Assembly (NCBI GenBank): GCA_965223725.1
Contig: CBDCXE010000005.1
Coordinates: 186,001-250,000 of the forward strand
DNA length: 64,000 bases
Reading direction: 5' to 3'
DNA from: CBDCXE01 sp965223725 [NCBI: Nitrospinota bacterium]
Lineage (GTDB): Bacteria; Nitrospinota_A; UBA7883
Part shown: in pieces, positions 1,813 through 32,625 of the stretch
Numbering within the stretch: position 1 is the stretch's first letter
How the letters are laid out: every line of letters begins with the position of its first letter
Notes under the pieces: model-generated
Databases searched by the model: none
What the model was told of the DNA's origin: nothing
What the model saw: the letters and a program-made list of their open reading frames with translations, nothing else
Made by a program: the position numbers and the translations under genes

Positions 1813-2943
1813 TTATCTTGTATTTTCTTTGCTATCCAGATTTCTAGTTTTCTCCATTGCAAGGGCGACAGTCTCTGAAGCCTGGATGGCCCACTCTTTA
1901 GAAATATGGATGTAACGTTCGGTTGTTTGAACCTGGCTGTGCGTCATGAGAGTTTTCAATGTAAACAGGTCTACACCATTGACTGCGGCAATGGTCCCGA
2001 ACGTGTGGCGTAAATCATGGAAGCGAAACTTTTTCGCCAGGCAGGCTCGTTTTTTGATCCTTTCCCACGATCTCTTGAATCCAACACGTTCACCTCCACT
2101 TTTCCCTGGAAAAACATAAGGACTGCTGGATCGGGGATGATTTTCCAATACAGCCTTTAGCGCCGAATTCATTGGTATGACATGTGTTTCTCCTTCTTTA
2201 CCCCCTTTGGGTTGACGCAGGAATATCAGGTTGCGTTCAAAGTCCAGATCATCCCAACGTAACCGGAAAATAGCCGACCTCCTCATTCCAGTGTACAAAG
2301 CAGTCAGGACAATGCCACGGGACTGTGGATCATGGTCGAGTTCGACCGCAGATAGGAGCGCTTTCATTTCTGGTTCAGTTAACACTTCTGTCTTTTCCGA
2401 TTTGTATTTGGGAACAATAATCTTGAAATTCAAAGGATCGCATAGTCCCTTCTCTTCACCAAACCTGACTATCCGCTTAATGAATCCTACGATATAAACA
2501 GCAGTTCTATACTTTCCAGCTTTTTGCAGTCGTATCCGTAAACGATCCACATCCAGTGGCTCCAGCTGTGATGGTTCTTTCATGCCGAGATCGTTTCTTA
2601 GATGCTTGTCATAAGTTCTTACCTCCCGGTCTCGTGATCTGTGGTAATGCTTTTGGTCGAGATAAATTTCCCAAATACGGTTTAAGGAGTACGTTTCTTT
2701 TGCAACAACCTTAAACTTCTCTCTATCAATTCTGCGCTCTTTATTTGATCTTTCACCAAAAACTCGACGCAACCTTATTTGGTTCGCCCTTGCCGCCGTC
2801 ACTCCAGGAGCAAATCCAACGGGTTCTTCAATGCGTTTGCCCGACTCTGAATGATAGTATCGGATATAGAACTTTTTTCCTGCTTTTGTCCTAATGAAGA
2901 AAACATCTTGGTATTTGGTTTTTTGTCGTTTGTAAGCTGGCAT
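1813..2943 (-). CDS. Tyrosine recombinase (island/phage integrase)
   Basis: A 376-residue integrase. The N-terminal part is an arm-binding/SAM-like core-binding domain (to about residue 180). The catalytic domain shows the R...HxxR...H...Y set: the Arg in TGMRRSAIFRLRW, HDLRHTFG, the His in LMTHSQ, and the Tyr nucleophile in TTERYIHIS. GGAGG lies about 8 nt before the ATG. The gene sits 132 bp from the 3' end of a tRNA-Lys gene and is read in the same direction, away from it. This is the classic position of an integrase that used the tRNA 3' end as attB. The element would extend left beyond the window. Confidence 0.93.
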   Translation of the reverse strand: MPAYKRQKTKYQDVFFIRTKAGKKFYIRYYHSESGKRIEEPVGFAPGVTAARANQIRLRRVFGERSNKERRIDREKFKVVAKETYSLNRIWEIYLDQKHYHRSRDREVRTYDKHLRNDLGMKEPSQLEPLDVDRLRIRLQKAGKYRTAVYIVGFIKRIVRFGEEKGLCDPLNFKIIVPKYKSEKTEVLTEPEMKALLSAVELDHDPQSRGIVLTALYTGMRRSAIFRLRWDDLDFERNLIFLRQPKGGKEGETHVIPMNSALKAVLENHPRSSSPYVFPGKSGGERVGFKRSWERIKKRACLAKKFRFHDLRHTFGTIAAVNGVDLFTLKTLMTHSQVQTTERYIHISKEWAIQASETVALAMEKTRNLDSKENTR

Positions 2944-2999
2944 CTGAGCGATCCTCCAAAAAAATCCTGTCGTAAATAAATGTAAAAACAGGGAAGCTT

Positions 3000-3020
3000 T
3001 GGGGGGAATATGGGGGGAAT
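3000..3020. repeat. Paired TGGGGGGAAT repeats between integrase and tRNA
   Basis: Two identical 10-bp direct repeats start at 3000 and 3011, followed by a T run. Short direct repeats between an integrase gene and its att site often act as arm-type recombinase binding sites. That role is inferred from position only. Confidence 0.4.
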
Positions 3021-3075
3021 TTTTTCCGCTATGTTTATCGCCGGTTTCCAGAAGGCTCTAACCCATTGAAAAACA

Positions 3076-3151
<76 letters not shown>

Positions 3152-3341: not shown

Positions 3342-3635
3342 TTATAGCCAGGCCATAGGTTTGTGTTTCTCCACGAGGTCAACGAATTCGTCATAGCCGA
3401 CCAGCTTGACACCATCCACCAGGCTGGAAATTCCGCGCGCTTTGGTGTCCGGCTCCAGGGCCAGCACTTCGTTCGATTCCATAATCTTTTTCAGTTTCGT
3501 TTCATAGTTGGTACCAGCTTTTGCCGCCAGTACACCATCCTCTATGAGCAGTATGGGTGACCCGGATGTGGCGATTCTTGCGCATTCGTCCAGGGCGCTG
3601 TTGCTGAAAGGTGATTTATTTACTGTATGTAGCAC
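3342..3635 (-). CDS. dsrH: DsrH/TusB-family sulfur-relay subunit
   Basis: A 97-residue protein of the DsrH/TusB family (MLHTVNKSPFSNSALDECAR...LLIEDGVLAA). The family's conserved cysteine is Cys18. Known role: with DsrE and DsrF it forms a hexamer that passes persulfide sulfur, in sulfur oxidisers from TusA to DsrC and in Escherichia coli for tRNA 2-thiolation. It is the last gene of dsrE-dsrF-dsrH. A 7-bp hairpin overlaps its stop codon but has no T-run. No dsrAB or dsrC is visible, so the acceptor here is unknown. Confidence 0.85.
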   Translation of the reverse strand: MLHTVNKSPFSNSALDECARIATSGSPILLIEDGVLAAKAGTNYETKLKKIMESNEVLALEPDTKARGISSLVDGVKLVGYDEFVDLVEKHKPMAWL

Positions 3636-3653
3636 TAGTCTCTCCTGTTGTCT

Positions 3654-4043
3654 TTAATAAGGTATTGCGGCGTGCTGTTCTTCCATGATGGCGCCCAGCT
3701 CATCGGATTCTTTAACCTCCACAGGTATAGCGAAATCGTCTGGTGTCAGGCCTCGCTCTTCCATGGAGACCCTGTCGACGTATATTTTTTCCACGTCATA
3801 ATCTTCCAGCGCGCCATAGGTTTTGATAAACCCTTTGATGCCGATGTCGTCGGTGTTCTGATCCTTGACAAGCGCAAACACACCATCACCGATAAACGCC
3901 ATGGAAAGATCCTGCTCATACGCCGCCATGATTAATACAGTCTCCAGCCCTTCATAGCTATAGATGGTTCCGTGGGGGGCCTTGCGCATCACAAAAATGA
4001 TCTTTTTAATATTTTCGTCCATCTCTTCCATTTCATCATTCAT
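3654..4043 (-). CDS. dsrF: DsrF/TusC-family sulfur-relay subunit
   Basis: A 129-residue DsrE/F-fold protein (IIFVMRKAPHGTIYSYEGLE...AFIGDGVFALVKDQ) matching DsrF/TusC in order and length. AAGGG lies about 8 nt before the ATG. Family members have no catalytic cysteine essential for transfer, and none is seen here. It sits 13 bp after dsrE and 18 bp before dsrH, so the three are surely co-transcribed. Confidence 0.82.
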   Translation of the reverse strand: MNDEMEEMDENIKKIIFVMRKAPHGTIYSYEGLETVLIMAAYEQDLSMAFIGDGVFALVKDQNTDDIGIKGFIKTYGALEDYDVEKIYVDRVSMEERGLTPDDFAIPVEVKESDELGAIMEEQHAAIPY

Positions 4044-4056
4044 ATTAATGCCCTTC

Positions 4057-4413
4057 CTAACCGAATGTCACGAGCCTGTCGGCTTCGATTGTCATATCCG
4101 TAAGCTGACCCAGTCCGGATATCCTTGTACCCTCAACAATATGCCCATCCTTGATACCGCGCCTTTTGGACGCCGCGATGCAGGCGACGATGTCCACGCC
4201 GTTATCCTTGCCCAGCTCGGTCCAGCGGTCGTAAATGTTGCGGTCATCTTGGGGTGGTTCGCCCATGTTGTTCACGTTCATCACCCCGTTGTGATAAAAG
4301 AAAACACCAACAATCGAATGACCCTTGCCCAATGCGGCTTTTATAAAGTGGTATGCCGTATCGGCCGCCTGATTGTTGTATGGAACCTCGAGAACCTGAA
4401 CAGCGATTTTCAT
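4057..4413 (-). CDS. dsrE: DsrE/TusD-family sulfur-relay subunit
   Basis: I chose the internal ATG at 4413 (MKIAVQVLEVPYNNQ), which has GGGAGAGG just upstream, over a longer open frame. This gives 118 residues, the family's usual length. The active cysteine is visible in DIVACIAASKRRG, matching the sulfur-accepting Cys of TusD/DsrE. First gene of the minus-strand dsrEFH operon; its promoter must lie in the 120 bp shared with the divergent epimerase. In known systems DsrE receives sulfur from TusA; a TusA-like candidate lies at 32201-32512. Confidence 0.85.
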   Translation of the reverse strand: MKIAVQVLEVPYNNQAADTAYHFIKAALGKGHSIVGVFFYHNGVMNVNNMGEPPQDDRNIYDRWTELGKDNGVDIVACIAASKRRGIKDGHIVEGTRISGLGQLTDMTIEADRLVTFG

Positions 4414-4533
4414 AGCCTCTCCCGATAAAGTTGTAAAATAAAATTTTGCGCCGGCTTTACTTTTTACGCTAGCGCACATTCAATATTGATGTTAAAACCT
4501 GCAGTTAGATTCAATATATTACGGGGAAGCCGA

Positions 4534-32200: not shown

Positions 32201-32512
32201 CTATACACGCCTCAAGTAAAATATTATCGTGTCGTCGTTGTCGATATCGGTGCCGATCAGCTCCGCCGTTTTGCATCGTGCGACCCACGAATGTATATCA
32301 GGGAAAGATCACGGATGGCCCGACTCGGTCCGCAGCACCTGGCCCGGCGCCATGCCGGAGAGCGTGGAATGGCTCAGCAACACCGGCATGCCCATCCCGC
32401 AGCCGCCCAGCCGGATGGTCACATCGGCGTTGATATCTGGTTTTTCGGTCTGTTCGATCAATCTCCGGACATCGTCCATCGACTTTATCGAGTGTTTTTG
32501 AAGAAAGCTCAT
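32201..32512 (-). CDS. Predicted selenoprotein, TusA/SirA-like sulfur carrier (in-frame TGA at 32309-32311)
   Basis: ATG at 32512 with AGAAGGGA about 8 nt upstream. Sixty-seven codons are followed by an in-frame TGA, then 35 more codons to TAG at 32201. Both sides of the TGA match one TusA-like domain: GGCGMGMPVLL (altered CPxP motif, Cys retained), GMAPGQVLR, then after the TGA SFPDIHSWVARCKTAEL and a final strand IIFYLRR. TusA of E. coli has ADDPATTRDIPGF where this has SGHP-U-SFPDIHSW. A SECIS-like hairpin follows (32274-32293). Read through, the protein has 103 residues. Alternative: a recent nonsense mutation, but then the well-formed hairpin would be chance. Confidence 0.75.
32274..32293 (-). 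promoter_or_regulatory. Bacterial SECIS-like hairpin
   Basis: In the mRNA, CAU-U-CGUG pairs with CACGAUG around the loop GGUCG: seven base pairs with one bulged U and a G-U in the apical loop. The loop starts 23 nt after the UGA. E. coli fdhF SECIS has the same features (bulged U, GGUC loop bound by SelB), with the loop 18 nt from its UGA. Confidence 0.72.
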
Positions 32513-32562
32513 AATCTACATCCCTTCTGGATACAGACTATTATAAATTACTCTATTAGCCA

Positions 32563-32590: not shown

Positions 32591-32625
32591 TAACGCTTTG
32601 CAAAATCGATAATCAGGAGATGGCA

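What the first reader, a model, noticed from the sequence alone, without database searches (positions are those of the whole stretch)
32201..32512. Probable selenocysteine-containing TusA-like sulfur carrier with a SECIS hairpin
Seen: an in-frame TGA at 32309-32311 inside one TusA-like domain, with recognisable family sequence on both sides (GMAPGQVLR before; SFPDIHSW and a closing strand after) and a final TAG at 32201. Seen: in the mRNA a 7-bp hairpin with one bulged U and the loop GGUCG starts 16 nt after the UGA, with the loop 23 nt after it. Known: E. coli fdhF SECIS has a bulged U and a GGUC loop bound by SelB. Inference: the TGA encodes selenocysteine next to a retained Cys in an altered CPxP motif (CGMGMP). 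A sulfur- or selenium-handling role beside DsrEFH would be new or little described.
Basis: partly seen in the sequence, partly recalled or inferred. Interest (0 to 1): 0.88.

Follow-up and report, generated by a model that had tools for sequence, protein, structure and literature searches.

The report
Selenocysteine-containing TusA-like protein family
A small sulfur-carrier-like protein whose gene looks cut short by a stop codon is very probably read through with selenium's amino acid, selenocysteine, and its relatives in another group of bacteria show the same arrangement, mostly inside sulfur gene clusters.

Summary
Minus-strand frame 32201-32512 has one in-frame TGA (32309-32311) inside a TusA-fold protein, followed by a 7-bp hairpin with a bulged U and GGUCG loop. 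The hairpin alone is weak evidence (40 of 2064 window TGAs do as well). The decisive evidence is comparative: in 245 genomes of a Neomarinimicrobiota relative's phylum, 18 carry a homologue with TGA at the same codon and no Cys form was found. There, codons after the TGA are frozen as GCC-TGG-TGC-AGR against local usage. Of 18 carriers, 16 have selD with its own TGA and 15 tRNA-Sec; 16 of 17 tested have selA. The family lost the CPxP cysteine (now Met), keeps a Cys two residues upstream (CGMGMP) and has Sec at the start of helix 2. Sixteen of 17 intact relatives lie among TusA, DsrE2 or Hdr genes; the window copy stands alone between proS and valS, 28 kb from DsrEFH. A 2026 table of 119 selenoprotein families and NCBIfam show no such family. 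Sec insertion is very likely, a sulfur-trafficking role likely, the chemistry inferred. The window's own genome could not be tested for Sec machinery.

The parts
32201..32512 (-). Sec-containing TusA-like gene, 103 aa when TGA is read as Sec
   Evidence: family profile E 3e-17; AlphaFold model mean pLDDT 86.3 with TusA fold
32309..32311 (-). TGA codon, predicted selenocysteine 68, at the start of helix 2 (motif HPU, codons 32317-32309)
   Evidence: TGA at the same codon in 18 homologues
32274..32293 (-). SECIS-like hairpin, 7 bp with one bulged U, loop GGUCG at 32285-32281
   Evidence: matching region under synonymous constraint in relatives
32384..32401 (-). CGMGMP motif (residues 38-43) in place of CPxP: Cys38 lies two residues upstream of the lost catalytic Cys, which is Met40
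   Evidence: invariant in the 16 rows of A3; compared with ordinary TusA paralogues
32521..32528 (-). probable ribosome-binding site AGAAGGGA, 8 nt before the ATG
   Evidence: read by eye

Best explanation
The locus encodes a selenoprotein: a TusA-fold protein in which the UGA at residue 68 is decoded as selenocysteine by SelB and tRNA-Sec, directed by the hairpin 16-35 nt downstream. It belongs to a family absent from the lists I could check, which has swapped the CPxP cysteine of TusA for methionine and placed Sec at the start of helix 2, probably near an invariant Cys in the CGMGMP loop. Most likely it is a sulfur-trafficking protein: Sec, with Cys38 as partner, accepts sulfane sulfur from the TusA/DsrE2 carriers encoded near its relatives and hands it on or reduces it, feeding cytoplasmic sulfur oxidation. 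Shown: conservation of the UGA, synonymous constraint, Sec machinery in most carriers, TusA fold, gene context in relatives. Inferred: Sec insertion in the window's own organism, Cys-Sec pairing, and the direction of sulfur transfer. My estimates: Sec reading 0.93, sulfur-trafficking role 0.65, this particular chemistry 0.4.
For: TGA at the same codon in 17 of 199 and 18 of all 245 genomes of the phylum, although the window protein is only 32-42% identical to the 15 relatives aligned. After the UGA the 18 relatives use GCC for Ala in 18 of 18, TGC for Cys in 17 of 17 (G009 has Val) and AGR for Arg in 18 of 18, while the Arg of PVIR in the same genes is CGN in 17 of 17 (G175 lacks that part) and local AGR use is 0.07-0.45 in 17 genomes. 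Ordinary TusA paralogues at the same place use GCC in 6 of 14. All 19 rows, window included, can form a GGU-loop hairpin at nt 23 or 24; 103 of 2064 window TGAs can. Machinery: selA over cut-off in 16 of 17 carriers of that draw, against 128 of 182 non-carriers; selD with its own TGA in 16 of 18 carriers (in G622 split over two contigs); tRNA-Sec over the gathering score in 15 of 18; selB over cut-off beside selA in G001, the only genome tested for selB. TGA is the stop of 14 of 50 called window genes, so the code is not reassigned. Fold: 3lvj_C (E. coli TusA) Foldseek E 4.2e-5, VIA Z 11.5, rmsd 2.0 over 77 residues. Tree: 17 Sec rows apart from 32 ordinary TusA rows, support 100/100. Context: 16 of 17 intact relatives among TusA, DsrE2 or Hdr-type genes. 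The TAG ends one base from the proS stop, so the read-through frame fills the gap.
Against: The window's organism could not be tested for Sec machinery. No Cys form was found, although almost all selenoproteins are said to have Cys homologues (PMC12013277, passage). Fold energies are unremarkable: window z -1.23, L001 z 0.17. In six relatives (G091, G113, G114, G057, G099, G622) the lowest-energy fold of the segment is another one and the GGU-loop hairpin is weak, -2.7 to -3.0 kcal/mol. selD hairpins of the same genomes have other loops, nearer to the UGA. Within the phylum the stem core hardly varies, so covariation cannot be counted. The window copy sits on a long branch (2.93) and has no sulfur genes beside it. 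G054 shows no selA and only weak selD-like matches, G099 no selD, and G001, G114 and G622 no tRNA-Sec over the score. selA is common in non-carriers too (128 of 182), so that contrast is modest. G113's contig shows no sulfur gene beside its copy except EtfB/EtfA.
Confidence: 0.8

Rival explanations
1. The TGA is a true stop or nonsense mutation, or a sequencing error, in a pseudogene or ordinary TusA gene.
For: Window copy on a long branch; the 35-aa tail is weakly matched alone; decayed copies exist in relatives (G632 with TCA at the site, an in-frame TAA and broken motif; G175 fragment).
Against: The same codon is TGA in 18 genomes of a distant lineage, which independent errors or mutations would hardly give. 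No other stop in the frame. The window shares all 14 invariant residues of A3 (it is one of the rows) and keeps a hairpin of largely different stem sequence.
Confidence: 0.05
2. It is a selenoprotein, but a thiol/selenol redox protein (peroxide or disulfide reduction) rather than a sulfur carrier.
For: The catalytic CPxP cysteine is gone while a Cys and a Sec remain at what may be one pocket; a redox function is thought likely for most uncharacterised selenoproteins (PMC13188914, section 7). The window copy has no sulfur neighbours.
Against: TusA fold and, in 16 of 17 intact relatives, a place among TusA, DsrE2 or Hdr-type genes.
Confidence: 0.3
3. It handles selenium, not sulfur: a selenium donor or relative of YedF.
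For: NCBIfam's best weak match for two relatives is YedF, a selenium-metabolism TusA-like protein (L011 E 1.2e-5, L009 E 4.5e-6, cut-off not reached).
Against: In the carriers selA and selD are not beside the gene: they lie on other contigs except in G002, where selA is about 42 kb away on the same contig. Only 18 of 245 genomes carry the gene although selA is over cut-off in 144 of 199.
Confidence: 0.08

Closest known systems
TusA / SirA sulfur carrier family (PF01206)
   Same: Same beta-alpha-beta-alpha-beta-beta fold and size; all 16 rows of A3 match PF01206 at E <= 0.01, best 2.2e-12.
   Different: No CPxP cysteine (Met instead), DPGS loop replaced by HPU with Sec; a separate group in the tree; the window is below the Pfam cut-off.
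YedF (selenium-metabolism TusA-like protein, NF008242) and YeeD/TsuB
   Same: TusA-like; YedF is the best weak NCBIfam match of two relatives; the YeeE-YeeD structure aligns to the model with Z 11.8.
   Different: Cys-based by recall; the NCBIfam cut-off of YedF is not reached (24.9 and 26.2 against 79 bits).
sHdr-LbpA sulfur oxidation system (Hyphomicrobium denitrificans)
   Same: Nine relatives lie beside Hdr-type genes, eight of them with a GcvH-like (lipoate-binding type) gene as well, often with EtfAB, lipoate ligase, LipS2-like, TusA and DsrE2 genes. In H. denitrificans sulfur reaches sHdr via rhodanese and DsrE3C, possibly involving TusA (PMC11582611, passages).
   Different: A Sec-containing TusA is not mentioned in the passages seen.
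Known bacterial selenoproteins of sulfur chemistry (DsrE-like UxxC, rhodanese-like, YeeE/YedE GUxSG, sulfide:quinone reductase type)
   Same: Sec in sulfur-handling proteins (Table 1 of PMC13188914).
   Different: None is listed as TusA or PF01206.

Membership tests
Bacterial selenoprotein | In-frame TGA at a conserved site with homology on both sides | tested here: met
   18 of 245 genomes plus the window
Bacterial selenoprotein | Hairpin shortly after the UGA with a conserved G in the apical loop (as described in PMC4607533, passage) | tested here: met
   Window 7 bp, GGUCG; synonymous constraint in relatives; weak in six of 19 rows
Bacterial selenoprotein | selA, selB, selD and tRNA-Sec in the genome | tested here: inconclusive
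   Window genome not held. In relatives:
Bacterial selenoprotein | Cys-containing homologue at the Sec site (usual, not obligatory) | tested here: not met
   None among the matches in 245 genomes of G001's phylum (E <= 1e-12) or the 8 read of 10 matching genomes in 398 of L002's phylum (E <= 1e-10); other phyla could not be reached
Bacterial selenoprotein | Selenium shown in the protein | not testable with these tools
   Needs 75Se labelling or mass spectrometry
TusA (PF01206) | TusA fold | tested here: met
TusA (PF01206) | Pfam gathering score | tested here: not met
   Window 21.9 against 28.6 bits; relatives match with E down to 2.2e-12, their scores against the cut-off were not listed
TusA (PF01206) | CPxP catalytic cysteine | tested here: not met
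   CGMGMP invariant in A3
YedF (NF008242) | NCBIfam cut-off, 79 bits | tested here: not met
   24.9 and 26.2 bits in two relatives, no match for the window
sHdr system component | Encoded within an hdr-lbpA cluster | tested here: not met
   Not met in the window; Hdr-type genes beside 9 of 17 intact relatives, 8 of these with a GcvH-like gene

The most novel reading that the evidence does not exclude
A sulfur carrier that holds its cargo on selenium: Sec at the start of helix 2 bears the sulfane sulfur as a selenenyl persulfide and Cys38 resolves it, giving a fast, reversible relay between TusA/DsrE2 and the Hdr-lipoate machinery. The active site of TusA would have moved from one helix to another, with no cysteine version left.
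Probability: 0.33. Interest if true: 0.85.

Novelty: new variant of a known kind. Interest (0 to 1): 0.72.

Why it matters
A gene finder that takes TGA as a stop ends these proteins early, so the family is probably mis-annotated wherever it occurs. If confirmed it adds a selenoprotein family on a fold not in the inventory I checked, ties selenium supply to cytoplasmic sulfur metabolism in uncultured bacteria, and offers a case of Sec without a known Cys counterpart, which bears on why Sec is kept. The prediction is directly testable by expression and mass spectrometry.

Tried and rejected
Reassigned TGA codon: rejected, 14 of 50 called window genes end in TGA. Chance hairpin as sole evidence: rejected as insufficient. 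Other selenoproteins in the window: a scan for TGA-interrupted frames gave 113; the 15 with little gene overlap (target included) were read by eye, and none but the target looked like a known protein split by its TGA. A weak Pfam match to PF21985 (E 0.062 and 0.03, far below its cut-off) was set aside. Viral contigs: 20 pattern matches, no relative. Plasmids: no match. Phylum of L002 (Rhodobacteraceae by record title, so Pseudomonadota by inference): 10 of 398 genomes matched at E <= 1e-10; 8 were fetched and read, all with CPxP, and none of the 10 is listed with an inner stop; only up to 13 candidates per genome were scored. Taxonomy of the window: its ValS gives full-length identities of at most 54% in 150 and 61 genomes of the two phyla (shorter pieces up to 65%), so it is not close to the genomes sampled; its phylum is unknown. 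RNAalifold and a covariance model were not run, since the stem core barely varies. Shared hairpin type with selD of the same genomes: not found. Literature: searches. The 5 papers holding TusA, selenocysteine and selenoprotein were seen as a listing only; none is about a TusA selenoprotein by title. Six exact phrases such as 'Sec-containing TusA' gave 0 papers. Only openly licensed PMC papers are searched. Haft and Tolstoy 2025 (PMC12013261) is not held; the 2026 inventory that cites it and NCBIfam release 20 were checked.

Full report
Observation. On the minus strand of the window, 32512-32201, a 103-residue frame is open except for one TGA at 32311-32309. It begins 8 nt after AGAAGGGA, and its TAG lies one base beyond the end of the converging proS gene; valS starts at 32620. 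It is not remarkable by energy (z -1.23), and 40 of 2064 TGAs in the window have a GGU-loop hairpin at least as stable at a similar distance. The case therefore rests on relatives.

Relatives. L002 is an ordinary TusA. L001, from a Candidatus Neomarinimicrobiota bacterium, has TGA at the same codon in a CGMGMP-type protein. In 199 genomes drawn from that genome's phylum (Marinisomatota in GTDB, name recalled) 17 carry the interrupted homologue; in all 245 held, 18 do. Seventeen are intact and one, G175, is a fragment without a recognisable first half. G091 has a second copy cut by a contig end at the TGA, not counted. In G632 the copy is decayed: TCA at the site, an internal TAA, motif lost; it is not counted either. 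No copy with Cys at the site was found, in this phylum (matches at E <= 1e-12) or among the 8 loci read of 10 matching genomes in 398 of L002's phylum.

RNA signal. After the UGA, the 18 relatives keep Ala as GCC (18 of 18), Cys as TGC (17 of 17; G009 has Val) and Arg as AGG or AGA (18 of 18). In the same genes the Arg of PVIR is CGN in 17 of 17; the Cys of CGMGMP (17 relatives and the window) is TGT in 11 and TGC in 7; Gly, Pro and Val codons of that motif vary. Neighbouring genes of 17 genomes use AGR for 7-45% of Arg, GCC for 19-66% of Ala and TGC for 25-87% of Cys (G175 gave no counts). At the same place in ordinary TusA paralogues GCC is used in 6 of 14. The genes are related, so the counts are not independent; the freely varying codons alongside are the internal control. 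The frozen codons form a short hairpin with GGU in its loop at nt 23; in G009, where Cys is Val, the loop becomes GGGUC, close to the window's. Against this: the hairpin is weak in six relatives and differs from that of selD in the same genomes. The window's stem differs in sequence but keeps GGU in the loop and gains outer pairs, so the hairpin rather than its sequence seems to have been kept.

Sec machinery. selA is over its cut-off in 144 of 199 genomes: in 16 of 17 carriers and so in 128 of 182 others. The phylum is widely Sec-using, so this contrast is modest. selD with an in-frame TGA of its own is present in 16 of 18 carriers (in G622 as pieces on two contigs) and tRNA-Sec in 15 of 18 (G632, searched with them, has both). 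G001 has selA directly before selB, but no tRNA-Sec over the score was found there; 150 of 412 and 131 of 414 candidates were scored, and the two best are tRNA-Ser. For the window's organism nothing could be tested. TGA is a normal stop there (14 of 50 called genes).

Protein. An AlphaFold model from 16 rows, Sec modelled as Cys, has mean pLDDT 86.3 and helices at 42-52 and 69-79. Among the best solved matches is E. coli TusA (Foldseek E 4.2e-5, the top row; VIA Z 11.5, rmsd 2.0, 77 residues, 22% identity); YeeE-YeeD chains score Z 11.8 and 11.7. Invariant in the 16 rows are G36, C38, G39, M40, G41, M42, P43, V44, G57, H66, Sec68, D72, W76 and F98. Set against ordinary TusA (LDCKGMNCPLPI...STDPGSINDMNAW), the catalytic Cys is Met40, a Cys sits two residues earlier, and DPG has become HPU. 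So Sec stands at the start of helix 2. That it faces Cys38 is inferred from the fold; the tool gives no coordinates. A tree of 17 Sec rows (window included) and 32 ordinary TusA rows splits the two sets with support 100/100; it has few columns, its bootstrap had not settled, and the window is a long branch.

Context. I fetched 19 neighbourhoods, called genes by longest open frames and grouped them by blastp, and named representatives from two genomes by Pfam and NCBIfam. Ten of the 17 intact genes (G001, G002, G009, G057, G089, G091, G099, G113, G114, G622) lie before etfB (directly, or after one small gene in G091, G113, G114). Nine of these ten have Hdr-type Fe-S and FAD genes beside them, and eight also a GcvH-like (lipoate-binding type) gene; G099's contig ends before it, and G113's 4.5-kb contig shows only the small gene, EtfB and EtfA. 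Several also show EtfA, lipoate ligase, LipS2-like radical SAM protein, ordinary TusA and DsrE2. Seven (G021, G030, G042, G049, G054, G085, G095) lie between DsrE2 and a rhodanese/metallo-beta-lactamase fusion, followed by Fe-S/NrfD and, where the contig reaches, molybdopterin oxidoreductase and DASS transporter genes. (NF047629, DsrE2, is over its cut-off in the G622 representative of that blastp group.) So 16 of 17 lie among TusA, DsrE2 or Hdr-type genes. The first layout resembles the sHdr-LbpA pathway of Hyphomicrobium denitrificans, where sulfur reaches sHdr via rhodanese and DsrE3C, possibly involving TusA (PMC11582611, passages). The window copy has no such neighbours; DsrE, DsrF and DsrH genes are 28 kb away at 3342-4479 (DsrE itself by eye).

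Mechanism. Best reading: Sec68 and Cys38 make a selenol/thiol pair at the two helix starts of a TusA fold; the protein takes sulfane sulfur from TusA or DsrE2 and passes it on, or reduces it, in cytoplasmic sulfur oxidation. The loss of the CPxP Cys and the lack of a Cys version in what I could search suggest that selenium chemistry matters. A pure redox role is the main rival.

Novelty. Table 1 of a 2026 review, stated to cover 119 prokaryotic selenoprotein families and subfamilies, has DsrE-like, rhodanese-like and YeeE/YedE entries but no TusA or PF01206 (PMC13188914; table and surrounding text read, passages in 40 and 46; part 3 of that section not read). NCBIfam gives only weak matches to TusA and YedF, plus weak hits of two relatives to a radical SAM family. 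Paper searches showed none by title or phrase. So this is, as far as checked, a new family of a known kind, bacterial selenoproteins, with an unusual relocation of the active residue.

Noticed in passing
L061 (G632:C11:44857-45039, minus): Decayed copy of the family with TCA in place of TGA, an internal TAA and a broken CGMGMP motif, still close to an intact ordinary TusA gene.
   Followed up: partly
L070, L074-L077, L082, L085: Second type of sulfur cluster in the phylum of G001: ArsR-like regulator (by eye), TusA, DsrE2, Sec-TusA, rhodanese/MBL fusion, Fe-S/NrfD fusion, molybdopterin oxidoreductase, two DASS-type transporters (the last parts only where the contig reaches); the substrate is unclear.
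   Followed up: partly
window 1813-3151: A frame of 376 aa that reads like an integrase (by eye, not scanned) lies next to a tRNA-Lys gene at 3076-3151, which suggests an integrated element at the window's left end.
   Followed up: no
window 3342-4479: DsrE/DsrF/DsrH-type gene set on the minus strand, far from the TusA-like gene.
   Followed up: partly
L066 (G091:C20:4063-4194): A second, nearly identical Sec-TusA copy cut by the contig end at the TGA; a true duplicate or an assembly overlap.
   Followed up: no
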